Source of the DNA: an uncultured bacterium
GTDB lineage: Bacteria > Verrucomicrobiota > Kiritimatiellia > RFP12 > UBA1067
NCBI GenBank assembly: GCA_902779865.1
Contig: CACZDG010000048.1
Span: forward strand, 1-39,952
Direction: 5' to 3'
Length of the DNA stretch: 39,952 bases
Shown here: piece by piece, positions 21,770-33,985 of the stretch
Layout: every line of letters begins with the position of its first letter
Position numbering within the stretch: the stretch's first letter is position 1
The notes under the pieces: model-generated
Database searches by the model: none
Told to the model about the DNA's origin: nothing
Seen by the model: the letters and a program-made list of their open reading frames with translations, nothing else
Program-made: the position numbers and the translations under genes

Positions 21770-21943
21770 AACTGGACCGGCGCGTCGCTCAAGGACGCTG
21801 GTCGTCTGACTTTCGCTGCGGCGAAGATGGGGGCGGAGATTATTCACGGCCTGTTTGATTCAATCCGCAAGGCGACATCGGAACGGCGTGAATACGGTAA
21901 AGGCAAGAAGACGCAAAATTTGCGACAACTGCGATGCAAGTAA
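21770..21943 (+). pseudogene. 3' remnant of a RhuM-family gene (copy 0)
   Basis: A frame without a start encodes WTGASLKDAGRLTFAAAKMG and continues through DSIRKATSERREYGKGKK. It is nearly the same as the C-terminus of copy 1 (about 22757-22905). It then ends in TQNLRQLRCK-stop. That last part comes from CAAAATTTGCGACAACTGC, the same DNA found in the variable segment of copy 3. So only the last ~50 codons of a fourth array member remain, with a foreign tail. Confidence 0.8.
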
Positions 21944-21987: not shown

Positions 21988-22937
21988 ATGACCGCGAACG
22001 AAAACCAGATTGTTGTCTATCAGCCGAACGAGACCGTTCGGCTGGACGTACGTCTTGAAAACGAGACCGTGTGGCTGACTCAGGAGCAGATTGCCAATCT
22101 CTTCGGCACAAAGAGACCGGCGATCACAAAGCACCTCGCTAATATCTACAAGAGCGGCGAATTGGAGGCACATGTTCCATTTTGGAACACATGGGTAACG
22201 ACGGCAAGCAGTCATACCGTACCATGTTCTATAACCTGGACGCCATTCTGTCTGTCGGATATCGCGTCAACAGCCGCAATGCAACATTGTTCCGTCGCTG
22301 GGCCACACAGGTCCTGAAGACTTATCTTCTCAAGGGTTACGCAGTCAATGCTCGACTGTCTCAGCTTGAAGATAGAGTTGACCGGCGGCTGGCGAAGCAT
22401 GATGACCGCATCGCCACCCTTGAACAGAAGGTCGATTTTTTCGTGCAGACCAAGGAGCCGCCGTTGCAGAGCATCTTCTACCAGAACCACTTCTGGGACG
22501 CGAAGTCGCTGTTGATCAAGTTCATCCGGCGGGCGAAGAAGGAGTTGATCGTAATCGATGCCTATCCCGGCATGGCGACATTGGACATGCTTGCGAAGCG
22601 CGGGCGCGGCGTGAAGATCGAGCTGGTGACGCATTCCAACGGCGAGCTGGAGGAATCGGACTTCGAGGCGTTCGGGAAACAATGCGGCAAGTTCACAAAG
22701 ACCATCTGCGGAGTCTGCCATGACCGCTTTATCGTCGTCGATCAGAAGGAAATCTTCTGGACTGGTGCGTCGCTCAAGGATGCGGGTCGCCTGACTTTCG
22801 CCGCGGCGAAGATGGGGGCGGAGGTCATCCCTGGTCTGCTTGATTCAATCCGCAAGGCGACGTCTGAACGACGGGAGTACGGCAAAGGCAAGAAAGTGGC
22901 GTTTGTGGTGGGATCGAAAGCGAGAGGTTTGATATAA
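21988..22937 (+). pseudogene. RhuM-family protein, copy 1 (frameshifted)
   Basis: One gene split over two frames. 21988-~22165 encodes IVVYQPNETVRLDVRLENET, then VWLTQEQIANLFGTKRPAITKHL, the helix-turn-helix start of RhuM proteins. From ~22170 the match continues one frame over (TCSILEHMGNDGKQSY ... NLDAILSVGYRVNSRNATLFRRWA). After a coiled LEDRVDRRLAKHDDRIATLEQ comes a C-terminal domain with HDRFIVVDQKEIFWTGASLK, similar to phospholipase-D-like folds. The shift lies just before a palindrome TGTTCC-ATTTT-GGAACA (22173-22189). An internal ATG at 22182 could express the distal 251 residues. The function of the family is unsettled (named after a Salmonella pathogenicity-island gene). Confidence 0.75.
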
Positions 22938-22938
22938 T
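22930..22938 (+). promoter_or_regulatory. Extended -10 promoter of RhuM copy 2
   Basis: TGA-TATAAT inside the last codons of copy 1. As in copy 1, six bases later a short frame (ATG at 22945, TGA at 22963-22965) overlaps the RhuM ATG at 22962. Confidence 0.55.
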
Positions 22939-22961
22939 ATGCGCATGAGAGGCATCGACAA

Positions 22962-23708
22962 ATGACAACTAGCGAAAACCAGATTGTTGTCTATCAGCCG
23001 AACGAAACCGTCCGGCTGGACGTGCGTCTTGAAAACGAGACGGTGTGGCTTCGCCAGAGACGCAACAGTTTCCAAAATGGAAACAGTTCAAACGGAGGGT
23101 GGCCGTTCAGTTGTTCGTACACAGGAGTTCTTCAATCTGGATGTCATTATTGCAGTCGGCTACAGGGTGAATTCACAACGTGCGACGCAGTTCCGTATTT
23201 GGGCGACGAAGGTACTCAAGGAATACCTCCTTTGCGGATATTCGGTCAATGCTAGACTAAACCAGCTGGAAGATACAATGCACCGTAACCTCGCGCGGCA
23301 CGACCAACGTATCGCCACTCTTGAACAGAAGGTCGATTTCTTCGTGCAGACGCAGACACCTCCTTTGCAGGGTGTGTTCTACGACGGGCAGTTGTGGGAT
23401 GCGCGGGCGTTGGTGCTGAAGCTGATTCAGGGCGCCAAGCGGTCGTTGATTCTGATCGACAACTGGGCGATGAATGAATGTTGCCATTGTGAAAATGTTG
23501 CCAGTCATCAATTCCAATTTCCAATGAAGGAGGCGGCATGAAGGAGATTGCGACCATCAGCATTGGAATTGGCAACATTGAAATTGGCAATACTTCCATA
23601 TTGGCAACATTCAACAAAGACCTTGGCCGCAAGTGCTTCGGCTTTACCAAGATGGATGCGGGCGCAATTCGTGGAATTAAGAAATTGGCGTTTCGTCCTG
23701 CCCCGTAG
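22962..23708 (+). pseudogene. RhuM-family protein, copy 2 (HTH deleted, frameshifted, element insertion)
   Basis: The 5' end is nearly identical to copies 1 and 3 (YQPNETVRLDVRLENETVWL). The HTH is missing: the DNA jumps at ~23050 to a different frame encoding RDATVSKMETVQTEGGRSV, then EFFNLDVIIAVGYRVNS. The match runs to IDNWA (23473), where ~190 bp of the gene are replaced by a palindromic element (23476-23611). After it the C-terminus resumes (KDLGRKCFGFTKMDAGAIRG). The element brings AAGGAGG plus an ATG (23538), which opens a 56-codon frame through the tail to 23708. The gene is certainly non-functional as a full RhuM protein. Confidence 0.8.
23476..23611. repeat. Palindromic element, copy A (in RhuM copy 2)
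   Basis: The ~50-bp arms are imperfect inverted repeats: the left starts GAATGTTGCCATTG, the right ends ATTGGCAACATTC. The interior is built from GTTGCCA / TGGCAA(C/T) and ATTGGAATTGG units. A related element lies in frame in the mod gene (28124-28216). It sits exactly where the intact relative (copy 3) has coding sequence. Confidence 0.8.
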
Positions 23709-23780
23709 AACGAGCTGCCCGTCCGGGAGGGCCGCGCTCCGTCGCGGCCACTGAATCGCCGCCACAACTCCTCTGATTTA

Positions 23781-23789
23781 TGGTATAAT
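23781..23789 (+). promoter_or_regulatory. Extended -10 promoter of RhuM copy 3
   Basis: TGG-TATAAT followed by ATTCGC. The short upstream frame of copies 1 and 2 is lost here: its ATG position reads ACG (23796). Confidence 0.55.
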
Positions 23790-23813
23790 ATTCGCACGAA
23801 AAGCAAAGCCGAT

Positions 23814-24771
23814 ATGAGTGCGAGCGAAAACCAGATTGTCGTGTATCAGCCGAACGAAACCGTCCGACTGGACGTGCGTCTTGAAAACGAGACGGTGTGG
23901 CTTAACCGTCATCAGATGGCCCAGCTCTTTGGACGTGACGTTAAGACTATCGGCAAGCACATCGCAAATGCTTTGTCCGAAGAACTTGCCTGTGTTCCAG
24001 TTGTCTCAGATTTTGCGACAACTCGACGATGCCAGGTGTCAACTGTCGCATGTCGCAAAATTTGCGACAACTGCCGCAGATGGGAAAGTCTATCAGGTTG
24101 AGTATTACAATCTGGACGTGATCTTATCTGTTGGTTATCGTGTAAAATCTGCGCAGGGCATTTTGTTTCGCCGGTGGGCAAATGCCGTACTCAAGGAATA
24201 CTTGCTTCGCGGATATTCTGTCAACACCCGCTTGAACCAACTTGAAGACAAGGTAGATCGCCGACTTGCGAAGACGGAGGCGGACGTGGCCAACTTGAAA
24301 GAGAAGGTCGATTTCTTCGTGCAGACGCAGACACCTCCTTTGCAGGGCGTGTTCTACGACGGGCAGTTGTGGGATGCGCGGGTGCTGGTGCTGAAGTTGA
24401 TTCAGAGTGCGAAGCGGTCGTTGATTCTGATCGACAATTGGGCGACGCCGGAAACGCTTGATCTTTTCGCCAAGAAGCGCAAGGGCGTGAAGGTGACGAT
24501 TATCACCTCGGAACATTACGACAAAAAGCACGTACCGCACCGCAAGATTTCGGATGCCGACATCGCGACCTTCAACGCGCAGTATCCAAAACTCGCCGTC
24601 CGCTACAATGAAACCTTTCACGACCGCTTCCTCATCATCGACGACAAGGAATTGTATCTGATAGGTGCGTCGCTGAAAGACCTCGGCCGCAAGTGCTTCG
24701 GCTTTACCAAGATGGACGCGAGCGCAATCCGCGGCATCAAGAAATCGGCGTTTGGGGTAGACGCAAGGTAG
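23814..24771 (+). pseudogene. RhuM-family protein, copy 3 (frameshifted)
   Basis: 5' frame: ENQIVVYQPNETVRLDVRL, then VWLNRHQMAQLFGRDVKTIGKHIANALSEEL, a complete HTH, ending VVSDFATT before the frame breaks near 24025. A second frame takes over with VAKFATTAADGKVYQVEYYN, LDVILSVGYRVKSAQGILFRRWA, a coiled region, QTPPLQGVFYDGQLWDAR and the PLD-like HDRFLIIDDKELYLIGASLK. The break zone looks like a diverged ~52-bp duplication: TTTGCGACAACT occurs at 24013 and again at 24061. The C-terminal 220 residues are the best preserved of the array. Confidence 0.78.
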
Positions 24772-24825
24772 TTTGTGAAGACGCTGGAGCTGTAATTCAA
24801 CTATCAACTATTGTGCGAGGGTGAA

Positions 24826-26739
24826 ATGAAAATCAAGGAAATACATGTAAGCCATTACTGCTCGTTCGGGCATGTTGCATGGGTGTCATTCAGTTCAAAC
24901 ATCATGGCGTTGATTGGACGCAATGGTGTCGGTAAGACGAACGCCCTTGATGCCATATCGCGCATGAAATTCTTCTGCGATGAGGTCGAGCGTGTTATTC
25001 CGGCACGAGCCGTCAATCAAAACACAGGCGAATCACCTGTTCTAAAGATTTTTGCGACTCTGGATGAGCAGGATATAGCGGAGTTAGGTTCCGAGATTGT
25101 CGGAGAAGAAGAAAACCGCGATGTGGGATATATGTTCACCTACGACAAATCCACTCGACGAACCCAGCTGTCGTTTTCAGGATTGTTTTTCTCGGTCATG
25201 CAAGATATTAAGGAATTGGCGAACTTGCGCGACGAGCTTAAAGAGTTTGGAGATTTTTTAAGGGAGAAGCGGATATTGAATGATGAACATTACCAGCGTC
25301 TTGTGTGGGCTCTCAAAGAATATGGCAGATTCTATATTCCAAACATTTCAGAACTTGTGTCTTGGGCATTGCAGAATCTTATCCATCACCTTGACGAGCA
25401 ACGCCGAAGCAAATTGAAGCTGTTGCTTGAACCATTACGAGACGCATTGGAAAAGCGCTATACGGCATTTCGCAAGATATCGCCACAGATTCACCTTTTC
25501 GAAGATGCCGCCGAGTTTCCCAATGCATACAATATCGATGAAGTCAAATCCTGGGATCATCGCATCAGTCGTGATAAGAAAATCGCGCTTGAACGTTTCC
25601 TGGGTGCGGTTGGCAGTTCTCGCAAAGAGTTGATTGCGGCATTTGACGAGAAAAATGAGAGTGTGCGCAATAATATACAAGATCGTATCGCCAAGGAGAC
25701 TCGAAAGCTGATGCGGGAATTTAACGATTCCTATCTAAAGGGATCGGCAGAAATTGAGCTCAATGTCAAGTTCGACGGATCGTGTCTTCGGTTCACCGTT
25801 TGCAATGCCGATACGACCGGTAGTGTTTTGTGGTCTGAGGCAAGTTCTGGCGTACGCTGGTATCTAAGCGCATTCTTCGAATTGAAACGTGCGTTGCACT
25901 CCCGCAATAGCATCATCCTGATTGATGAACCTGCGATACACCTGCACATAATGGCACAGAAGGAAGTCCTGAAGTTGCTTCAAAAATTGGCGCAGGGGAC
26001 GAAATATGTGCTGTACACGACACACAGCCCCTATCTTATCGATAAGAACAGGCTTGGGGATGTCAAGGCGATTGTTCGCCAATCAAATACATCGATCATT
26101 GAGAATCTGACGGCTATTGAGGATTGTCCCAGCCGGATGGAAGTTCTTACGCCGGTTTGCCATGCGCTTGGATATGACATGTCCATGAGTTTAACACCGC
26201 AAACATCACGTATGAATCTGGTCGTCGAGGGAATATCTGACGCGTATTACATCAATGCAATGCTGACGTTTCTGAAAGTCTCTGACGAAGACAGGCCGTT
26301 TGTGATTCCATGTCAGGGTGCGCCATCTGTACCCAATGTTCTTTCTATTTTGATGGGGTGGGGCTTGCCGTTTTCCGTTCTGCTCGATTACGACGAAGAG
26401 GGGCTTAAAACTTCCAAGAAAATCGACACGGCTTTTGGCGAGACCGGATTTCACGTCTGCATGGTGTCGCGTGAGCGAGGAAGCCAGATTGAAAATCTTC
26501 TTTCGTCCGAAGACTATCGGAAGGTGTGTGGCAAAGAGTTTGATCCGACGGACATCAAGAAGTCGAAGACGGCAAAGGCGCGTCGATTCGCGGCTATGGT
26601 TGAATCTGGTGAATTGATCCCAGACGAAATAACAATTAAGAACTTCAACCGGATATTCAGTTGGCTTGAGATCCTCAATTGGGAAGGGGCTTCTGATGAT
26701 GAACTTGAATGGTCTTGCAAGCATCGCAACAATGCGTAG
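24826..26739 (+). CDS. OLD-family ATPase/TOPRIM endonuclease
   Basis: A 637-residue protein with an ABC/SMC-type ATPase followed by a TOPRIM nuclease, as in phage-defence OLD nucleases. Walker A is GRNGVGKTN (residues ~31-39), a signature-like SSGVRWYLSAF precedes Walker B (SIILIDEPAIHLH), and the switch His is in YTTHSPYLID (~400). The TOPRIM metal residues are in LVVEGISDAYY (~466) and LLDYDEEG (~520). It probably acts on DNA as an ATP-regulated nuclease. The start at 24826 follows GAGGG; no separate promoter is clear. It is the first gene of a run with mod, fic and res (55-base gap to mod). No helicase partner is adjacent, so it is not a standard Gabija pair. Confidence 0.85.
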   Translation: MKIKEIHVSHYCSFGHVAWVSFSSNIMALIGRNGVGKTNALDAISRMKFFCDEVERVIPARAVNQNTGESPVLKIFATLDEQDIAELGSEIVGEEENRDVGYMFTYDKSTRRTQLSFSGLFFSVMQDIKELANLRDELKEFGDFLREKRILNDEHYQRLVWALKEYGRFYIPNISELVSWALQNLIHHLDEQRRSKLKLLLEPLRDALEKRYTAFRKISPQIHLFEDAAEFPNAYNIDEVKSWDHRISRDKKIALERFLGAVGSSRKELIAAFDEKNESVRNNIQDRIAKETRKLMREFNDSYLKGSAEIELNVKFDGSCLRFTVCNADTTGSVLWSEASSGVRWYLSAFFELKRALHSRNSIILIDEPAIHLHIMAQKEVLKLLQKLAQGTKYVLYTTHSPYLIDKNRLGDVKAIVRQSNTSIIENLTAIEDCPSRMEVLTPVCHALGYDMSMSLTPQTSRMNLVVEGISDAYYINAMLTFLKVSDEDRPFVIPCQGAPSVPNVLSILMGWGLPFSVLLDYDEEGLKTSKKIDTAFGETGFHVCMVSRERGSQIENLLSSEDYRKVCGKEFDPTDIKKSKTAKARRFAAMVESGELIPDEITIKNFNRIFSWLEILNWEGASDDELEWSCKHRNNA

Positions 26740-26794
26740 TTTGCTATTTGTGGCATTGACCACTTTGAACCTATTTGCTGAAGGAGAGTACAAA

Positions 26795-28441
26795 ATGCCG
26801 ATGTTGAAATGGGCGGGGAAAGAGAAGGTCGTAAACCACCACAATGATGTGCCGTTCAGGGTGCTTGAACGGAAGTGGGCGTTTGGCGATGCCGCGTCCA
26901 CAAATGGCGAGAACATGGTCGTTCACGGCGACAACCTTGCCGCGCTCAAGGCGCTTCTGCCGCAGTATGAGGGCAAAGTCAAGTGTATCTACATCGATCC
27001 GCCATACAACACCGGCAACGAGGGATGGGTTTATAGCGACAACGTGAACGATCCGCAGATCAAGAAATGGCTGGGTGAAGTCGTCGGCAAGGAGGGCGAG
27101 GATTTCTCTCGTCACGACAAATGGCTCTGCATGATGTATCCGCGTCTGCGGCTCTTGCAGAAGCTGCTTTCCAATGACGGCGTGATTTTTATCAGCATTG
27201 ATGACAATGAGTTTGCGAACTTGCGACTCGTTTGTGATGAGATATTCGGGAGTCAAAACTTTGTTGCGACCCTAACGTGGAAGAGCAGGGCGAAACCATC
27301 TAATACTGGTAAAGCGAAATATAAACCCCAGAACGACGCCGAATTCGTTTTGTGTTACAAGGGCAAGGGTGAGGCTAATTTTTTATGCGTAACATCTGGC
27401 AAGCCGCGCAGTTATCCACACGAAGACAAAGATGGAAGGTATCGTCTTCAGACCATTCTGAAATCAAATCGGGGAGAGAATAAGCGTGAAACGATGACAT
27501 TCTCGCTTGCAGGTTATACGCCTCCACCGACCAAACGATGGCAAGCCGGCGAAGAGAAGATCAAGGAACTGTATGCCAAGAATCGGATTACCTTTGAGAC
27601 CGGTGAGCCGATGTTGAAATACTATGAACATGAGGAAAAAGAGGAGGTCGCTCCGTTTTGGTGCCATATTCCGAGAGAAGTGAGCGGGACGGCCGAAGGC
27701 GGTAAAATGGTGCTGAATCAATTATTGGGAAACATGCATGGTTTTGACACCGTAAAACCACTTGAACTGATAGAGTACCTTTTGAAACATGCGTTGCCCA
27801 ATGATGCCCTTGTCCTTGATTCCTTTGCTGGCTCTGGTACGACGGCTCATGCGGTTCTTAAGATGAACAAGGAGGATGGCGGCAACAGAAAGTTCATTTT
27901 GATTGAGATGATGGACTATGCCGACACGGTGACGGCAGAGCGAGTGAAGCGTGTTATAAGCGGCTATGGAGAAGGTGACAAGGCCGTGGAGGGAACTGGC
28001 GGCGGGTTCGGCTACTACGAACTCGGCGAGCCGCTGATGATCGGCGAGAATCTTAACGAGAACTTGCCTCTTGAGAAGATTCGGGAATACGTGTGGTACA
28101 TGGAGACACGAGGCGCGGGAAGTGTTGCCAATGTGGAAGTGTTGCCAATAGCCAATGCCCATTCTCAATCGGAAAATGGCAACATTGGAATTGGCAACAC
28201 TGGCAACATTGGCAACATTAAAAATGATCCGTATCTTCTTGGAATAGCGGATGGCGCGGCTTACTACTTCTGCTATGAGAAGGGATCGGCGGTGAAGCTA
28301 AACCGCGCACTTCTCAGAAAGCTTAAGACCAAGGCAGAGCGATATGTCGTTTATGCCGACATCTGTCTTTTGGATGATACGGAACTTGAGAAATACAACA
28401 TCACCTTCAAGAAGATTCCGCGTGACATTGCAAGGCTGTAA
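26795..28441 (+). CDS. mod: Type III restriction-modification DNA methyltransferase (Mod)
   Basis: An N6-adenine methyltransferase of the beta arrangement (548 residues). The catalytic motif YIDPPYNTGNEGW is near residue 68 and the AdoMet motif DSFAGSGTTAHAVLKM near 342, with the target-recognition region between them. It should methylate the site recognised by the downstream Res subunit. Residues ~444-474 are an odd stretch (NGNIGIGNTGNIGNI) encoded by a palindromic element inserted in frame. The start at 26795 follows AAGGAGAG; an upstream ATG in the same frame overlaps the OLD gene. The fic gene follows after 12 bases. Confidence 0.9.
   Translation: MPMLKWAGKEKVVNHHNDVPFRVLERKWAFGDAASTNGENMVVHGDNLAALKALLPQYEGKVKCIYIDPPYNTGNEGWVYSDNVNDPQIKKWLGEVVGKEGEDFSRHDKWLCMMYPRLRLLQKLLSNDGVIFISIDDNEFANLRLVCDEIFGSQNFVATLTWKSRAKPSNTGKAKYKPQNDAEFVLCYKGKGEANFLCVTSGKPRSYPHEDKDGRYRLQTILKSNRGENKRETMTFSLAGYTPPPTKRWQAGEEKIKELYAKNRITFETGEPMLKYYEHEEKEEVAPFWCHIPREVSGTAEGGKMVLNQLLGNMHGFDTVKPLELIEYLLKHALPNDALVLDSFAGSGTTAHAVLKMNKEDGGNRKFILIEMMDYADTVTAERVKRVISGYGEGDKAVEGTGGGFGYYELGEPLMIGENLNENLPLEKIREYVWYMETRGAGSVANVEVLPIANAHSQSENGNIGIGNTGNIGNIKNDPYLLGIADGAAYYFCYEKGSAVKLNRALLRKLKTKAERYVVYADICLLDDTELEKYNITFKKIPRDIARL
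28124..28216. repeat. Palindromic element, copy B (in frame inside mod)
   Basis: Exactly 93 bp (31 codons) with imperfect inverted arms: left GTTGCCAATGTGGAAGTG, right ending CTGGCAACATTGGCAAC. The same building blocks occur in copy A. The mod frame stays open through it and yields an Asn/Gly/Ile repeat, which resembles the in-gene palindromic elements known from Rickettsia, though the sequence is different. Confidence 0.8.
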
Positions 28442-28453
28442 GGAGATCATGCA

Positions 28454-29605
28454 ATGAACGACTTTGACGAATATCTTGTAGCGGGAGAGCCCGACAAGCG
28501 CGAGCGCGCATACGGGTGGGCTACGGCAATCGGCCTTCAGGATGTGGACGGACTGAAGGTTTCAGACTTTCTGCTCAATACCGCGAAGCGCAACATCGAG
28601 GGCGAGATAACCCAGGTGGAGGCCGGGAAGATCATTGATGCCTACTACGAAACAAAGGAGGGGCATGATCAGCCGGAGGACAGAAAAGAGGCGGACAAGG
28701 TTGCGCGTAGAATCAATGAGACGATAAATTCTCCGACTTTCCGTTTTTCGCCGGAATACTATATCGGATTGCACGGCCGGCTTTTCAAGGATGTGTACTC
28801 TCATGCCGGAAAGATACGCGATGTGGAGCTTACGAAGCGAGAATGGGTGTTGAACGGTGATACGGTCAACTATACGCCGTCGTTCATGGTGAAAGAATCG
28901 CTTGCGTATGATTTCGCAGAAGAAAAGAAATTCCGTTACAGCGGACTTTCCGAGGATGCGTTTGCGGAACATTTCGCGTCTTTCATTTCGGGACTCTGGC
29001 AGATTCATCCGTTCAGAGAGGGCAACACGAGGACCGTCGCGGTTTTCGCCATCAAGTACCTGCGTTCCATGCGCTATGATGTGACGAATGCCCTGTTCAA
29101 GGAGAAGTCGTGGTATTTCAGAAATGCGCTTGTGCGGGCGAACTATGAGAATCCCAAACTAAATGTTGAGAAGACGCAACTTCCTCTGGAGGAGTTCTTT
29201 AAGGTTCTCATATACGGATATGACATTGAACTGCGTAATAGATTTTTACGTATTGGGTACGAGCATGGGACGCAAAAGGCCGAAGCTGTGAGGCATTTAC
29301 ACCGACATGACGTCGGTATAAATGTCGGTATAAATGACGGTGTAAACAGAGGGGATGACGGTGTAAATGACGGTGTAAACAGCGGGAAGAACGACCTAAT
29401 AGGAAGATATGCACTCTCGGAACGGGAAGAAAAGGCTGTTATGGCGATACTTCGAGATAATCGCATTACAGCGAAACAATTAGCGGACATTCTTTCGGTT
29501 AAAAAGCGACAGGCAGAGCGAATAATAGCATCGCTTAAACGGAAAACGCCACTTCGTAGAGATGGAGCGGATAAAAATGGCCGTTGGGTTTTCGAGGAGG
29601 TTTGA
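28454..29605 (+). CDS. Fic domain protein with C-terminal winged helix
   Basis: A predicted AMP-transferase (383 residues). The Fic motif HPFREGNTRT is at residues 185-194, with the catalytic His. The flap region RDVELTKREWVLNGDTVNY precedes it. The N-terminal KRNIEGEITQVEAGKIIDAYY resembles a VbhA-type antitoxin segment fused to the enzyme, which would keep it inhibited. Residues 287-309 are a tetrapeptide repeat (VGIN/DGVN) encoded by 12-bp DNA repeats. Next comes a winged helix-turn-helix (NRITAKQLADILSVKKRQAERII). It lies between mod and res, 12 bases after mod and 2 bases before res, so it is part of that operon. Confidence 0.88.
   Translation: MNDFDEYLVAGEPDKRERAYGWATAIGLQDVDGLKVSDFLLNTAKRNIEGEITQVEAGKIIDAYYETKEGHDQPEDRKEADKVARRINETINSPTFRFSPEYYIGLHGRLFKDVYSHAGKIRDVELTKREWVLNGDTVNYTPSFMVKESLAYDFAEEKKFRYSGLSEDAFAEHFASFISGLWQIHPFREGNTRTVAVFAIKYLRSMRYDVTNALFKEKSWYFRNALVRANYENPKLNVEKTQLPLEEFFKVLIYGYDIELRNRFLRIGYEHGTQKAEAVRHLHRHDVGINVGINDGVNRGDDGVNDGVNSGKNDLIGRYALSEREEKAVMAILRDNRITAKQLADILSVKKRQAERIIASLKRKTPLRRDGADKNGRWVFEEV
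29312..29380 (+). repeat. In-frame 12-bp tandem repeats in fic
   Basis: Five units: GTCGGTATAAAT twice, GACGGTGTAAAC, a 9-base spacer, GACGGTGTAAAT, GACGGTGTAAAC. The unit length keeps the frame, so copy-number changes would only alter linker length. Confidence 0.85.
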
Positions 29606-29607
29606 CG

Positions 29608-32250
29608 ATGGAGCTCAAGAATTACCAGAAGCTTGTTCTCAAAGACATTGACGCATATCTTGACGCGCTGATGAAGACGGACGGGATTAACGCCGCATGG
29701 AAGGAGTATTGGGCAAGCAAAGGAATCGGGGCGGGATTTGCCGCCTACTACGACGATCTTGCTGGTACGCCTAACGTGTGCATAAAGGTGCCGACTGGCG
29801 GCGGCAAGACATTTCTCGCGGCATCTTCCGTCAAGACGGTGTTCGACAAGCTGCCGACGGGAAAGACGAAGTTCGTGGTGTGGCTTGTGCCGAGCGACGC
29901 GATTCTCACGCAGACCGTCGCAAATCTGTCGAATCCGAACCATCCGTATCGGCAACGGCTCGACAGGGACTTTGGCGGATGCGTCAATGTCTATACGAAG
30001 GAACAGCTTCTAAACGCCCAGAACTTCAAGCCGGCGGATGTCATGGAGAACTTGAGCATAGCGATATTCTGCTATGCGTCGATCCGCGCCAATCCGAAGA
30101 GCAAGGACGACAAGAAAATCTATCAGGAAAACGGCAACCTTCTTGGTTTCGCGGAGATGTTCAACGACAAGGAACTTCTTTTGGCCGATACGCCTGATAC
30201 TGCCTTGCTGCAGGTCATCCGCCAGATGAATCCTGTTGTTGTGGTGGACGAGAGCCACAATGCGAAAAGCGAGTTGAGCATTGCCATGCTCCAGAACCTG
30301 AATCCGTCTTTTGTCCTTTCCATGACGGCTACGCCAACCAAGCGGAGCAACATTATTTCGTATGTGAACGCGCGGGAGTTGAAGAAGGAGAACATGGTAA
30401 AGCTGCCGGTCGTGGTGTACAACCGTCCAGACCGAAAAAGCGTAATCTACGATGCGGTAAAACTGCGCGGCGTACTGGAACTGAAGGCAAAGGCGGAGGC
30501 GACATCTGGCGGGAACTATGTGCGTCCGATTGTGTTGTTTCAGGCCCAACCCAAAAATACCGAGGATTCGGCGACGTTCGAGAAGATCAAGGCGAAACTT
30601 GTCGCGATTGGCATAAAGGCGGAAGAGATTGCGATAAAGACCGCAGAGAAGGACGACCTCAAGGCGATCGATCTCATGGCGTCAAATTGCCCTGTCCGCT
30701 ACATCATAACCGTCAATGCGCTCAAGGAAGGGTGGGATTGTCCGTTTGCATACGTTCTTGCGTCGCTTGCCAACAAGACATCGCAAGTAGATGTCGAGCA
30801 GATCGTAGGCCGTATACTTCGACAGCCTTATGCCAGAAAGCATGGCGAGAAGCTTCTCAACATGTCGTATGTGCTTGCTTGCAGTGCGGATTTCCAGGCA
30901 ACAGTCAAGAGCGTGGTGGATGGCCTCAACGGAGCCGGATTCAGCGCGAGTGATTATCGCGTGGCGGATGCAAATGTCATGGAGACGGCACCATCGCCAG
31001 AACTAGTCCAGACGACATTGGACGATTTCTCGGAGGTCAAGCCATGCGAGCCGTCCAACAAAGATTTAGAAGACGATCTTTCTGATGTGCCGGACGAAAA
31101 GATCGATATTCCGAAACAAGACGATGTGGAGACGCAGACGAATACAGATGCCGCCATTGGCGAAATTATCAATACAGCCGAGGCGCAGGGTGACGATTAC
31201 GAGCAGAAAAACAAAGAAGCCGGTGATGATGGTTTGTTTAATCTGGGAGTTCCAAACGTGAAAATACATCGCATGCAGCCAGAGTTCGCCGCTGAAGCGG
31301 CGCAGTTGGAGATTCCGCAGTTCATGGTGCAGGATGATGCCGGCATGTTCGGTGGCGACGAATTGCTGGTGCCTCTGAATGAGACTGCGTTGCTTGATGG
31401 ATTCACTCTTGCGGCGAAGGATGCCGCAGTGCCATTCAATCTTGCAGTTTCAGGAGCCGTTCGCGTTGACATATCCGAAAGCGGGGATGTTACGCCAAAG
31501 TGCAAGCAGCTGACGAAATCAGAACTTGAGTATTTCTCCGCACAACTTGCGACAAAGACTACTGACGACAGGATAAATGCTTTGCTCAACATGGCAGCAA
31601 CACAGCTTGACAGTAAGATTGACTTCTGCCAGAAGAAGGAGATCAAGGACTATGTTGTGCGTGTTGCGCAGCAGCTTCCTGCCGCTGAGCGCAACCAACT
31701 GTCATTGGAGCTCTTGCCGTCGTTTGTCCAGTGCGTCAGGGACAAAATAGACAAACTTGCGAAGCAACACAAGAGGTTGGCTTTCAGCGACAAGATAAAT
31801 CAGAACGTCGTGGTGTGCAAGGCAAATTACAAGTTGCCGCAGACGATACAGCCGATTCCTGCCGTTACTTATATTGAGAAATCTTTGTACACGGGTGAAT
31901 ATGCCGACATGAACCCTGAGGAGTTCTCGGTGATTCAGGCAATCGCAAGTAAGGAGAACGTGAAATGGTGGCATCGGATCAAAGACCGCAAGGGGTTCTG
32001 CATCAACGGTTTTATAAATCACTATCCTGACTTTATGGTTTATACCGATAAAGGCAATGTGGTGTTGGTTGAGTATAAAGGCGCAGACAGAGATGGTAGC
32101 GATTCTCAGGCAAAGGCGGAACTTGGACGAATCTGGGCTGACAATGCGGGGCAAAAGTACAAATACTTCATGGTGTTCCTGAAAGATGGCGATGCCGTAC
32201 AGGGTGCATTGAAGATCGACGCGTTCTTGAATACCATTGAGAAGTTGTAA
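29608..32250 (+). CDS. res: Type III restriction endonuclease subunit (Res)
   Basis: An SF2 helicase/nuclease of 880 residues that cuts DNA with Mod after ATP-driven translocation. The Walker A PTGGGKT is at residues 62-68, the DESH box (VVVDESHN) at ~214, SMTATP shortly after, and the arginine-finger motif QIVGRILRQP at 398-407. The PD-(D/E)xK nuclease lies at the C-terminus: PDF at ~807 and EYK at 822-824. All motifs are intact. The start at 29608 follows GAGGAGG with ideal spacing, 2 bases after the fic stop. Downstream are only gene fragments. Confidence 0.92.
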   Translation: MELKNYQKLVLKDIDAYLDALMKTDGINAAWKEYWASKGIGAGFAAYYDDLAGTPNVCIKVPTGGGKTFLAASSVKTVFDKLPTGKTKFVVWLVPSDAILTQTVANLSNPNHPYRQRLDRDFGGCVNVYTKEQLLNAQNFKPADVMENLSIAIFCYASIRANPKSKDDKKIYQENGNLLGFAEMFNDKELLLADTPDTALLQVIRQMNPVVVVDESHNAKSELSIAMLQNLNPSFVLSMTATPTKRSNIISYVNARELKKENMVKLPVVVYNRPDRKSVIYDAVKLRGVLELKAKAEATSGGNYVRPIVLFQAQPKNTEDSATFEKIKAKLVAIGIKAEEIAIKTAEKDDLKAIDLMASNCPVRYIITVNALKEGWDCPFAYVLASLANKTSQVDVEQIVGRILRQPYARKHGEKLLNMSYVLACSADFQATVKSVVDGLNGAGFSASDYRVADANVMETAPSPELVQTTLDDFSEVKPCEPSNKDLEDDLSDVPDEKIDIPKQDDVETQTNTDAAIGEIINTAEAQGDDYEQKNKEAGDDGLFNLGVPNVKIHRMQPEFAAEAAQLEIPQFMVQDDAGMFGGDELLVPLNETALLDGFTLAAKDAAVPFNLAVSGAVRVDISESGDVTPKCKQLTKSELEYFSAQLATKTTDDRINALLNMAATQLDSKIDFCQKKEIKDYVVRVAQQLPAAERNQLSLELLPSFVQCVRDKIDKLAKQHKRLAFSDKINQNVVVCKANYKLPQTIQPIPAVTYIEKSLYTGEYADMNPEEFSVIQAIASKENVKWWHRIKDRKGFCINGFINHYPDFMVYTDKGNVVLVEYKGADRDGSDSQAKAELGRIWADNAGQKYKYFMVFLKDGDAVQGALKIDAFLNTIEKL

Positions 32251-32324
32251 TATGTATGTAGATGATGAGGTGTGGTGGTATGTGGATCGCACCGAACTCT
32301 GAAAGCGAGAAAGGAGCAAAGGCG

Positions 32325-32462
32325 ATGAATCTGAAGGACGAAATACTTGCTGGCGAATCATACTCGCTTGAATTCAAGCTTGTCCCGAACGAGGACAGAA
32401 TCAAATACCTGAAGACGGTGGTCGCGTTTGCCAACGGCAGGGGTGGATGGGGATTGTCATGA
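32325..32462 (+). pseudogene. AlbA_2/Schlafen-type N-terminal fragment 1
   Basis: Forty-five codons after a good ribosome site (AAAGGAG). LEFKLVPNEDRIKYLKTVVAFANGRGG is the opening of AlbA_2 (AAA-4, Schlafen-like) DNA-binding proteins. The frame stops exactly where the next strand of the domain should follow. The remaining ~400 residues expected for the family are absent. Confidence 0.75.
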
Positions 32463-32474
32463 AGGAAAACACAA

Positions 32475-32627
32475 ATGAACGCTGAAGAATTTGAAAAGAT
32501 TGTCGCAAGGCACGAGATGCAGTGCCTGGAGCTGAAGGAGTCTTTCAATGTCGAGTGCATCGAGACGGCTTGCGCGTTCTCGTTGCACGAAGGGCGAATT
32601 TTCCCTGTATGTGCAATAATGGGTTAG
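32475..32627 (+). pseudogene. AlbA_2/Schlafen-type N-terminal fragment 2
   Basis: Fifty codons beginning MNAEEFEKIVARHEMQCLELKE, then ETACAFS, which again is an AlbA_2 start (LELKESF... ETACAF). The match ends at ~32585; the following residues are unrelated. It starts 12 bases after fragment 1 and is a different paralogue. Confidence 0.7.
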
Positions 32628-32643
32628 TAGGGTAGCGGCAGTA

Positions 32644-32652
32644 TGGTATAAT
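32644..32652 (+). promoter_or_regulatory. Extended -10 promoter of the third AlbA_2 fragment
   Basis: TGG-TATAAT, 19 bases before the ATG at 32672, with GGAGGAAATGAC as ribosome site. The promoter is intact although the gene is not. Confidence 0.55.
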
Positions 32653-32671
32653 CTTGTGCGGAGGAAATGAC

Positions 32672-33137
32672 ATGACACTTGAAGAGTTGAGAAAACTTGT
32701 CGCAGATGGCGAGGGCGACCATGTGGAGTTCAAGGAAACGACGGGGTATCGGCCTTATCGTCCACGCCTGTGAAAAGGCGCATCTCGCCCCGCCCCGCAT
32801 CTACGAAGATCGAGGCTTTGTCTATACTGTGTTTACTCGCCCGACCAAACAGGAATGGAACGCCAAGGTACAAGGCGACAATCAGGCCGCAACAGATAGC
32901 GAGGGAACTGGACTAAAGACTAGCCTAAAGACTGGCCTAAAGGAGAGTTCGGACACAGTTACTCAAACCTTGCGACAAATGATAAAGGACAATCCGACGA
33001 TGACAATTTCGATGATGTCGGAAGCTACAAATCTGTCGCGCAATGGTGTGAAATATCATTTGCGGTTCTTGAGGGATAAATTTGGACTGACACGTGTTGG
33101 TGGACGCAAGAGCGGGCATTGGGAGTTCCGAAAGTAA
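32672..33137 (+). pseudogene. AlbA_2 ATP-binding protein with large internal deletion (fragment 3)
   Basis: The N-terminal frame MTLEELRKLVADGEGDHVEFKE is an AlbA_2 start and is closed at 32773. From ~32740, one frame over, comes the C-terminal part of the same family: GLIVHACEKAHLAPPRIYED, GFVYTVFTRPTKQEW. It is followed by a repeat linker (GLKTSLKTGLKES, 12-bp DNA units at 32910-32945) and a winged helix (TISMMSEATNLSRNGVKYHL ... GHWEF). The central part of the protein is deleted and the junction is out of frame. Confidence 0.75.
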
Positions 33138-33142
33138 CGGCG

Positions 33143-33456
33143 ATGCTGGTTGCCAAGATATTCATGGGAAAAGAACTTGATGATTCAGTTGTAAAGTCTT
33201 ACTTTACAACTGCCGCAGACGGCAAAAGGTACAATGTCATCTACTATGCGCTGGAAATGATTCTTGCCGTCGGGTTTCGCGTTCGCGGTGTTCGCGGAAC
33301 GCAGTTCCGGCAATGGGCCAATGCGCATTTGAGCGAGTATCTTGTAAAGGGATTTACGATTGACGGCGCAAGGAGGAGGCTCGGCTTGCAGACGAGGCGG
33401 ACATGGAGGAGCTGCTGCGGATTGAGGACGAGGCAAAGCGACGCGGCAAGGATTGA
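33143..33456 (+). pseudogene. RhuM-family fragment (copy 4) fused to another gene tail
   Basis: From 33143 the frame encodes MGKELDDSVVKSYFTTAADG, then KRYNVIYYALEMILAVGFRV, RGTQFRQWANAHLSEYLVKGF, which is the central RhuM region. The HTH and the C-terminus are missing. At ~33370 another frame starts (EEARLADEADMEELLRIEDE ... RRGKD, stop at 33454) from an unidentified gene end. The variable segment again carries a palindrome, arms GTTGTAAAGT (33188-33197) and ACTTTACAAC (33201-33210). Confidence 0.7.
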
Positions 33457-33464
33457 TGGCGAAA

Positions 33465-33634
33465 ATGAACGCTGAAGAACTTGAAACGAAGAAGACAAGA
33501 TCAAGTGGTTGCGGCAGTTCCTCGGAATGTCTTCGGAATTGGTATTGAATGTTGCAGGCCCGCGCGAGTCGAAGGCTCCTGGCATACAGGCAAGGGCGAA
33601 GGCGTTCTTGGAAGAGCTGTTGTGGAAGGCATGA
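33465..33634 (+). pseudogene. AlbA_2-like start fused to a molybdenum-carrier-like 3' end
   Basis: MNAEELE at 33465 repeats the start of fragment 2 (32475). After ~10 codons, one frame over from 33494, the sequence reads DKIKWLRQFLGMSSELVLNV, then AGPRESKAPGIQARAKAFLE and a TGA at 33632. The LNVAGPRESK...PGI pattern resembles the C-terminus of the putative molybdenum carrier family (MoCo_carrier). Both parents are reduced to short pieces. The family call of the second part is tentative. Confidence 0.5.
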
Positions 33635-33985
33635 CCAAGGGGTGTTCTCTGCGCTGTACTTCACAAATTGTGAAGTAGCGCGTAATCAGCCCGAGGGGTG
33701 TGATTGTTCCGCACCGTAATCGCACGAGGGTTTCGGGGGTGTCAGGTACAAAAAAGAGCGTAAGTCATAGCTGATGGATGTGGATTCCGAGTCGTTCGGG
33801 TTGGCGCTATGGGATGGGTGGTTGATGAATATGGGGGCACTTCTGGCTGATGACTGTCCGAGCTTGGACAAAGAAGCTACAGGATCATAGACCTAACGAG
33901 TACGCCTGATGGACTTTAAGAGTTCACCAGATGCTGTTCACTGGGGTGTCATACTCGGCTGCCAAAAAACTGTTAAAATCCAGGC
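33635..33985. other. Gene-free stretch at the right edge of the island
   Basis: No coding frame with a recognisable protein on either strand and no RNA gene seen. The one notable structure is a perfect 19-base palindrome at 33658-33676 (arms ACTTCACAA / TTGTGAAGT), immediately after the molybdenum-carrier fragment. It resembles in style the palindromes of the RhuM copies. Confidence 0.5.

What the first reader, a model, noticed from the sequence alone, without database searches (positions are those of the whole stretch)
22173..33210. Each RhuM paralogue has a different palindrome at the same position
Just after the HTH region, the segment that varies most between RhuM proteins is palindromic in DNA in every copy, but with unrelated sequence. 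Copy 1: TGTTCC-ATTTT-GGAACA (22173-22189). Copy 2: GTTTCC-AAAAT-GGAAAC (23068-23084). Copy 3: GTCGCAAA-A-TTTGCGAC (24052-24068), plus AGTTGTC...GACAACT (23999-24023). Copy 4: arms GTTGTAAAGT/ACTTTACAAC (33188-33210). They encode TCSILEHM, TVSKMETV, VAKFATT and VVKSYFTT. A palindrome conserved in shape but not in sequence, inside a coding region, suggests an allele-specific operator or self-recognition site matched to the adjacent HTH, or a recombination or inversion site that diversifies the protein.
Basis: partly seen in the sequence, partly recalled or inferred. Interest (0 to 1): 0.8.

Follow-up and report, generated by a model that had tools for sequence, protein, structure and literature searches.

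The report
Genes carrying their own binding site
RhuM genes, found across bacteria, archaea and their viruses, contain inside the protein-coding sequence a variable DNA palindrome that changes in step with the protein's own DNA-reading helix, so each gene seems to carry the address that its protein reads, and some phages carry copies of these addresses.

Summary
All palindromes lie at the stated coordinates. In 221 non-redundant RhuM genes from many phyla and phages, a ~25-bp palindrome sits at one fixed codon: 215 have at least 8 of 10 arm pairs; mean 9.34, against 6.35 after synonymous recoding (z 48). The arms vary (89 half-sites in 214 genes) and track exposed recognition-helix residues, also between distant backbones and along a tree; control residues track them much less. 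Arm mismatches show no net G:T excess (35 against 41 A:C), favouring DNA over an RNA hairpin. Best reading: each rhuM gene carries, in the codons of its own wing strand, the operator its winged helix-turn-helix binds. Binding is inferred. The three window sites tested are nearly unique in their genome, so the site probably acts in cis. ORF6N, DUF1016_N and Bro-N genes show similar palindromes at fixed codons; AlbA_2 does not. Phage loci without detected rhuM carry exact operators, possibly decoys. All four window copies are broken near the palindrome. Function is unproven.

The parts
21988..22937 (+). RhuM copy 1 (HTH, operator, RhuM core, C-terminal part), frame broken just before the operator
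   Evidence: ORFs 21988-22317 and 22182-22937 in different frames; PF13310 match in the second; three-frame translation
22078..22143 (+). HTH of copy 1; recognition helix TKRPAITKH at 22108-22134 (K at -10, P at -14, R at -15)
   Evidence: translation; register from alignments
22173..22189 (.). Operator of copy 1, TGTTCCATTTTGGAACA; core TCC and TG as the code expects for K(-10)/P(-14) and R(-15)
   Evidence: only place in the 4.3-Mb genome at up to 1 mismatch; code
22962..23541 (+). RhuM copy 2, HTH largely deleted, C-terminal part truncated
23064..23088 (.). Operator of copy 2, AACAGTTTCCAAAATGGAAACAGTT
   Evidence: its 17-bp centre has one other place in the genome, with 1 mismatch
23814..24771 (+). 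RhuM copy 3 (HTH, two operator versions, RhuM core, C-terminal part with a weak PLD-like match), frame broken in the operator region
   Evidence: PLDc_2 24.1 bits, under its cut-off of 27
23904..23969 (+). HTH of copy 3; recognition helix RDVKTIGKH at 23934-23960
   Evidence: sequence; the same helix goes with the core GTCGCAAA in L014
23999..24023 (.). First operator version of copy 3, AGTTGTCTCAGATTTTGCGACAACT, 9 of 10 arm pairs
24051..24069 (.). Second operator version of copy 3, TGTCGCAAAATTTGCGACA
21910..21930 (.). Relic operator with right flank (GACGCAAAATTTGCGACAACT) after an older RhuM C-terminal relic
   Evidence: 1-mismatch match
33119..33475 (+). RhuM copy 4, N-terminal HTH missing
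33186..33212 (.). Operator of copy 4, CAGTTGTAAAGTCTTACTTTACAACTG (12-bp arms)

Best explanation
Each rhuM gene carries inside its coding sequence, right after the HTH codons, a ~25-bp palindromic operator that is read by the winged HTH of the protein it encodes. The recognition helix reads the inner bases (3 to 8 from the centre), and the wing, whose first strand is itself encoded by the operator, goes with the outer bases (10 to 12). The operator dictates the amino acids of that strand, so helix, wing and site change together and travel together when the gene moves. Shown here: fixed position, palindromicity beyond codon constraint, variable sequence, covariation with exposed helix residues. 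Inferred: that a RhuM dimer binds the site, and what binding does. Because the three window sites tested are nearly the only cognate sites in that genome, the most likely role is cis self-control: the protein sits on its own gene, blocking its transcription and perhaps keeping its effector part (RhuM_C, Fic or PLD-like) inactive. My odds: self-binding operator about 0.85; negative self-control through it about 0.5.
For: Position and palindromicity: 0.894 at one centre, next 0.409; 215 of 221 genes with at least 8 of 10 pairs; synonymous control 6.35; z 48. Covariation: excess mutual information up to 1.31 bits, residue -10 with position 4; at most 0.03 for buried -12 and -9; E-CGG 46 of 48, L-[AG]AG 35 of 35, R-GCA 24 of 27, Q-AAG 17 of 19; core triplet predicted leave-one-out from residues -10 and -14 in 191 of 212. 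Not mere linkage: 214 genes, donors under 50% identical downstream: helix 0.719, residues between helix and operator 0.397, random 0.381; co-change 0.88 and 0.85 of the possible for the matching pairs; 0.38-0.59 for ten control residues. DNA rather than RNA: (G:T 35, A:C 41 at positions 3-12). Structure: (recognition helix 43-55, then strand 65-71 within the operator-encoded peptide, then strand 77-83). Wing class with outer bases: (EG-AAC 145 of 145, DGK-AGT 45 of 45). Nearly unique sites. Similar architecture in other families: with AlbA_2 as clean negative.
Against: No binding or expression experiment was possible. A promoter operator was expected for an ordinary autorepressor and was not found: 3 further cognate sites around 270 genes, 1.4 expected. 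No relative among solved structures by sequence, and the best fold match (DdrC) is weak. At position 2 from the centre G:T mismatches exceed A:C (34 to 7), as an RNA hairpin would give, though that position is near the centre; without position 8 the arm count is G:T 30, A:C 24. The wing-outer-base link involves neighbouring codons, so it is weaker evidence than the helix link. Residues outside the helix reach up to 0.30 bits and control residues co-change at 0.38-0.59, so shared ancestry does contribute. L207 has an HTH but a weak palindrome (6 of 10). In the window no intact gene of this kind exists.
Confidence: 0.8

Rival explanations
1. The palindrome is an RNA hairpin in the rhuM messenger (translation control or stability), not a DNA site.
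For: Short loops and arms of 7-15 bp would fold; G:T exceeds A:C at position 2 (34 to 7).
Against: In the arms G:T (35) does not exceed A:C (41); the arm sequence tracks recognition-helix residues of an HTH; pairing runs into the centre (position 1 paired in 72%). I folded no RNA.
Confidence: 0.05
2. Amino-acid and codon constraint alone makes the segment palindromic.
For: Synonymous recoding still leaves 6.35 of 10 pairs, so the peptide itself is permissive.
Against: Observed 9.34 of 10, z 48. In two Synechococcus phages a perfect operator lies in another reading frame of an annotated gene (ELSGNSGQL).
Confidence: 0.01
3. The palindrome is a tiny mobile element, or a homing or recombination site: RhuM binds it to move gene pieces, and operators spread by insertion next to other operators.
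For: Different operators lie close together in phage loci L272, L276, L391, L399 and L405 and in the relic L423; all window copies are broken near the operator; L221 has a 23-bp-arm palindrome with its own core after the gene.
Against: Three window operators are not repeated in their genome beyond a relic and a one-mismatch site and no extra cognate sites surround 270 genes beyond chance; the C-terminal parts seen are RhuM_C, Fic and PLD-like, no transposase, in the few proteins scanned.
Confidence: 0.1
4. The site is a target by which RhuM of one element excludes rival elements that carry the same allele (an immunity-group marker); diversity arises by frequency-dependent selection.
For: RhuM genes lie close to the integrase gene in the phage and satellite records opened; many alleles; RhuM models are listed as candidate defence systems (PDC-S05, PDC-S23).
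Against: The carrier would also target itself unless binding alone is harmless; some phages keep operator copies inside genes, which a target would be expected to lose.
Confidence: 0.12

Closest known systems
RhuM family, Pfam PF13310 (PADLOC PDC-S05 / PDC-S23)
   Same: The window copies belong to it by sequence. Biol Direct 2013, PMC3710099 (two passages read), proposes RhuM as a toxin domain in restriction-modification loci, often fused to DOC.
   Different: Neither those passages nor the listings of my ten paper searches mention an operator inside the gene or helix-site covariation. The Pfam profile begins at the palindrome.
Autoregulators with a binding site inside their own gene (for example parS inside the B. 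subtilis ParB gene spo0J; recalled, not looked up)
   Same: Palindromic site of a DNA-binding protein inside the gene that encodes it.
   Different: parS is strongly conserved (recalled); here the site is highly variable, covaries with the helix in 214 genes and encodes part of the DNA-binding domain.
ORF6N, DUF1016_N and Bro-N proteins
   Same: Variable palindromes at fixed codon and phase in each family: ORF6N 16 and 4 of 26 at two columns, DUF1016_N 10 of 23 at one column and phase, Bro-N 5 and 4 of 16 at two columns.
   Different: Different position and core; helix-site covariation not tested there.
DdrC of Deinococcus radiodurans (PDB 8u0g)
   Same: Best Foldseek match of the RhuM model (E 2.9e-3, probability 0.99).
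   Different: TM-scores only 0.24 and 0.33; 10% identity.

Membership tests
RhuM (PF13310) | Match over the curated cut-off of the Pfam model | tested here: met
   69.3, 83.1, 72.1 and 76.5 bits against 33.7 for the four window copies
RhuM (PF13310) | Intact full-length protein (HTH, core, C-terminal domain) | tested here: not met
   All four window copies are frame-broken or truncated
Autoregulator with intragenic operator | Palindromic site inside its own coding sequence, beyond codon constraint | tested here: met
   9.34 of 10 against 6.35
Autoregulator with intragenic operator | Site matched to the protein's own recognition helix | tested here: met
   (covariation; no binding assay)
Autoregulator with intragenic operator | Protein binds the site and lowers its own expression | not testable with these tools
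   Needs binding and reporter assays
Classical promoter autorepressor | Cognate site near the gene's promoter | tested here: not met
   3 extra sites around 270 genes, 1.4 expected
RNA hairpin element | Excess of G:U-compatible mismatches in the arms | tested here: not met
   G:T 35, A:C 41 at positions 3-12; position 2 is the exception (34 to 7)
Dispersed palindromic element (REP- or RPE-like, recalled) | Many copies in one genome | tested here: not met
   Three window operators: 1, 2 and 2 places in 4.3 Mb at up to 1 mismatch
Phage decoy site | Exact operator kept in phages without rhuM | tested here: inconclusive
   Sites present, but in one phage gene only 10 of 43 homologues keep the exact form; no RhuM found in 9 records, which may be fragments and had no positive control

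The most novel reading that the evidence does not exclude
A general class of defence- and phage-associated DNA-binding proteins (RhuM, ORF6N, DUF1016_N, Bro-N) carries a variable 'self-address' in its own gene. The protein is leashed on that single site in the cell and is set free or activated when the host DNA that holds its own gene is lost or out-competed. Phages answer with matched operator copies, sometimes of several kinds close together, that act as decoys and evolve from one operator class to another.
Probability: 0.27. Interest if true: 0.97.

Novelty: categorically new. Interest (0 to 1): 0.93.

Why it matters
A gene family in which the DNA site is carried by the gene that encodes its reader gives hundreds of natural helix-site pairs: a ready data set for a protein-DNA recognition code (191 of 212 core triplets predicted from two residues), and it lets the binding site of an uncharacterised protein be read from its own gene. 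It gives a handle on what RhuM, and perhaps ORF6N, DUF1016_N and Bro-N proteins, recognise. If the phage copies are decoys, it also shows a DNA-level counter-defence. The core claim can be tested at once with binding assays.

Tried and rejected
Promoter operator: scanned the loci of 270 RhuM genes for second cognate sites, nothing beyond chance. Intrinsic terminator for the phage intergenic sites: no T-run seen by eye in the printed contexts; no terminator program was run. RNA hairpin and pure codon constraint: see rivals. Dispersed repeat in the own genome: not seen for three operators. The 17-mer GTTGCAAAWTTTGCAAC gave 65 viral contigs, mostly not in RhuM frames, but is short and AT-rich, so I drew nothing from it. 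E. coli genomes: Photorhabdus RhuM DNA gave no match. PDB by sequence: nothing convincing. PMC8263062 (passages) concerns a phage nuclease aimed at a parasite's origin: related in spirit, not this. PMC12988326 (one passage) mentions PDC-S05 only among trees. Ten paper searches (listings only, open-licence PMC) showed no title or abstract start describing intragenic palindromes in these families; several listings were capped and most subscription papers are not held.

Limits of the counts. Of 262 HMM domain hits in 241 loci, 250 could be anchored and 221 remained after dropping short or at least 90% identical ones. The genome-contig scan kept the best 80 of 581 relatives (itself a capped list) and the second viral scan 80 of 185. 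Covariation used 214 of 221 genes. Linker classes are my own regular expressions; 19 genes fell in 'other' (14 of them AAC). A first count of operator-like palindromes (94 outside, 22 inside RhuM) used a RhuM list made before 63 of the loci were fetched; one search replaces it (24 inside, 5 in RhuM-like pieces, 87 neither). Phage 'other ORF' labels use any open frame of at least 70 aa, many of which may not be genes. The Bro-N set contains at least one RhuM gene (L545). In one search only 15 ORF6N genes were found by motif; searches used 30 loci.
Full report
What was claimed.

The window. The palindromes are real and at the stated coordinates. All four genes are relics: copy 1 shifts frame just before its palindrome, copy 2 lost most of the HTH, copy 3 holds two operator versions in a duplicated, frame-shifted stretch, copy 4 lacks its N-terminal part. 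A further relic operator lies at 21910-21926. The copies stand beside an AAA ATPase with a sub-threshold OLD-like TOPRIM match and type III restriction-modification genes. The assembly (4.3 Mb, 272 contigs) has seven PF13310 matches.

The family. I gathered 241 loci: 37 from the own genome and 58 genomes of its family, 94 viral, 80 named genome contigs from many phyla including archaea and 30 from 96 genomes of the phylum. An HMM built from 13 rows matched in all 241. After anchoring and redundancy removal 221 genes remained. Averaged over these, one centre, the third base of the tenth codon counted from the E of 'GEL', has a paired fraction of 0.894 over 12 arm positions; the next best is 0.409 and the mean over all centres 0.255. 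At arm positions 3 to 12, 128 genes have 10 of 10 pairs, 73 have 9, 14 have 8, and six have fewer. Of these six, five show a palindrome at a shifted place or in a broken frame (L001 and L005, which are window copies 1 and 4, L079, L043 and the second gene of L111; by eye); L207 is truly weak. Recoding each segment with synonymous codons at the gene's own usage gives 6.35 (sd of the mean 0.06); swapping arms between genes gives 5.26.

DNA, not RNA. In the arms G:T mismatches (35) do not exceed A:C (41), contrary to what an RNA hairpin would leave; 17 of the A:C are at position 8, and at position 2, near the centre, G:T leads 34 to 7.

The protein reads it. Mutual information between HTH residues and operator bases is highest for exposed residues of the recognition helix: -10 with positions 3-5 (0.91-1.31 bits above shuffles), -15 with positions 7-8 (1.11, 0.87), -14 with positions 4-7 (up to 1.01), and also -17, -16, -13 and -11; buried -12 and -9 give at most 0.03, and residues outside the helix at most 0.30. 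The code is simple: E at -10 goes with CGG (46 of 48), L with AAG or GAG (35 of 35), R with GCA (24 of 27), Q with AAG (17 of 19), M with AAG (15 of 17), K with TCC (18) or GCA (8) of 26. Residues -10 and -14 predict the core triplet leave-one-out in 191 of 212 genes. Window copies 1 and 3 obey it.

Is it only linkage? Helix and operator are neighbours, so they could be inherited as one block. Against this: choosing, among genes less than 50% identical downstream, the one with the most similar helix recovers 0.719 of six operator bases; the residues lying between helix and operator recover 0.397, an N-terminal stretch 0.418, downstream similarity 0.396, random 0.381. The gain shrinks at stricter cut-offs (0.534 against 0.364 at 40%). 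On a tree of the downstream region the core triplet needs 80 changes; joint changes with residue -10 reach 0.88 of the possible maximum, -15 with positions 7-8 0.85, the two crossed pairs about 0.6, ten control residues 0.38-0.59. So ancestry contributes but does not explain it.

Structure. An AlphaFold2 model of L014 (mean pLDDT 87.6) shows a winged HTH: recognition helix 43-55, then a strand at 65-71 within the operator-encoded peptide, a loop and a second strand 77-83. The loop class goes with the outer bases: QxEGxR-like with AAC (145 of 145), ADGK-like with AGT (45 of 45), HGA-like with GGT (4 of 5). These are neighbouring codons, so this is weaker evidence than the helix. Foldseek's best match is DdrC, weakly; no relative in the PDB by sequence. 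C-terminal parts differ: RhuM_C (L014), Fic (L031, L034) and a sub-threshold PLD-like match in window copy 3, so the reading module is shared by different effectors.

Cis, not a regulon. Around 270 RhuM genes only three further cognate sites were found, 1.4 expected; three window operators are nearly unique in their genome. In 387 genomes of the phylum one common operator occurs six times: four in RhuM frames (L419, L420, L422, L424) and two in RhuM-like fragments by eye (L421, L423). In plasmids it hits two records, both annotated as RhuM genes.

Phages differ. The same operator (22 bases specified) lies in 63 viral contigs; after collapsing similar contexts there are 42 sites, of which two are in RhuM frames, two in RhuM-like pieces (L363, L374) and 38 in neither. 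A permuted palindrome of equal composition gave none. A second operator gave 11 distinct sites (one from a named phage record), two in RhuM and nine not; a third gave 10, seven in RhuM, one in a RhuM-like piece and two not. A generic scan of the 147 loci that these and the 17-mer scans and the opened phage records brought in found 24 operator-like palindromes in RhuM, 5 in RhuM-like pieces and 87 in neither, against one in shuffled sequence; these loci were mostly chosen for holding an operator, so 87 is not a rate. Different operators stand close together in several. In a primase-like phage protein (PriCT_2, DUF5906), 38 of 42 readable homologues carry the site or altered forms, while the four at about 68% identity lack it; one form has the outer bases of the other class on both arms. 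Only 10 of 43 keep the exact 25-mer, so decay is as fair a reading as class switching. In two Synechococcus phages a perfect operator lies in an annotated gene in another reading frame. Among 50,697 named phage records such sites are rare: 17 records matched one operator query, four of them at 99% identity or more, mostly over part of the query, and four matched another, none above 95%. No RhuM was found in nine viral records with one operator, but these may be fragments. Decoys against RhuM are my guess, unproven.

Other families. With 30 loci each, the best palindrome near the match against 60 synonymous recodings: RhuM 9.37 against 7.63, ORF6N 9.13 against 7.55, DUF1016_N 8.87 against 7.62, Bro-N (29 genes) 8.69 against 7.49, AlbA_2 (29 genes) 7.48 against 7.52; genes at p 0.05 or less: 19, 16, 14, 13 and 0. 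After alignment the palindromes fall on shared codons and phases: ORF6N 16 and 4 of 26 at two columns, DUF1016_N 10 of 23 at one, Bro-N five and four of 16 at two. Helix covariation was not tested there.

Mechanism. Most likely a RhuM dimer binds the operator inside its own gene and limits its own expression or activity. A gene that carries its operator in its coding sequence stays regulated wherever it moves, which suits genes found in phages, satellites and defence-like loci (PMC3710099, passages). The binding step is strongly inferred, the regulatory step is a guess, the leash-and-decoy model a further one.

Novelty. Single operators inside genes are known (recalled). A highly variable operator that encodes part of its own reader, covaries with the helix across phyla, has parallels in other families and has phage copies was not seen in the listings of ten paper searches of an open-licence library.

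Noticed in passing
window 22022-22045: A second palindrome with 10-bp arms (CAGCCGAACGAGACCGTTCGGCTG) in the codons of YQPNETVRL of copy 1; a 9-of-10 version of the same peptide region appears in L250.
   Followed up: no
window 33656-33676: Palindrome TACTTCACAAATTGTGAAGTA with 10-bp arms downstream of copy 4; its centre resembles ORF6N-type palindromes.
   Followed up: no
L221, centre 2421: Palindrome with 23-bp arms, containing the operator core of the RhuM gene it follows, shortly after that gene's stop.
   Followed up: partly
L374, L376, L380: A RhuM-like peptide ELDPDSTVKEYLTVQTEGPRQV embedded in an otherwise different phage open frame.
   Followed up: partly
L423: Relic in which two operators of different outer class stand within about 70 bases, similar to window copy 3.
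   Followed up: partly
L242, L247, L268, L271 (ORF6N genes): Some ORF6N genes carry the palindrome-encoded peptide twice in tandem (for example LRSQIVTLNVGTSLRSQIVTLN), so perhaps two sites in one gene.
   Followed up: no
window 32697-33137: Small open frame with a sub-threshold winged-helix match (HTH_24); the sequence just before it reads like the start of an AlbA_2 protein (recalled resemblance, not tested), so possibly one more broken gene.
   Followed up: no
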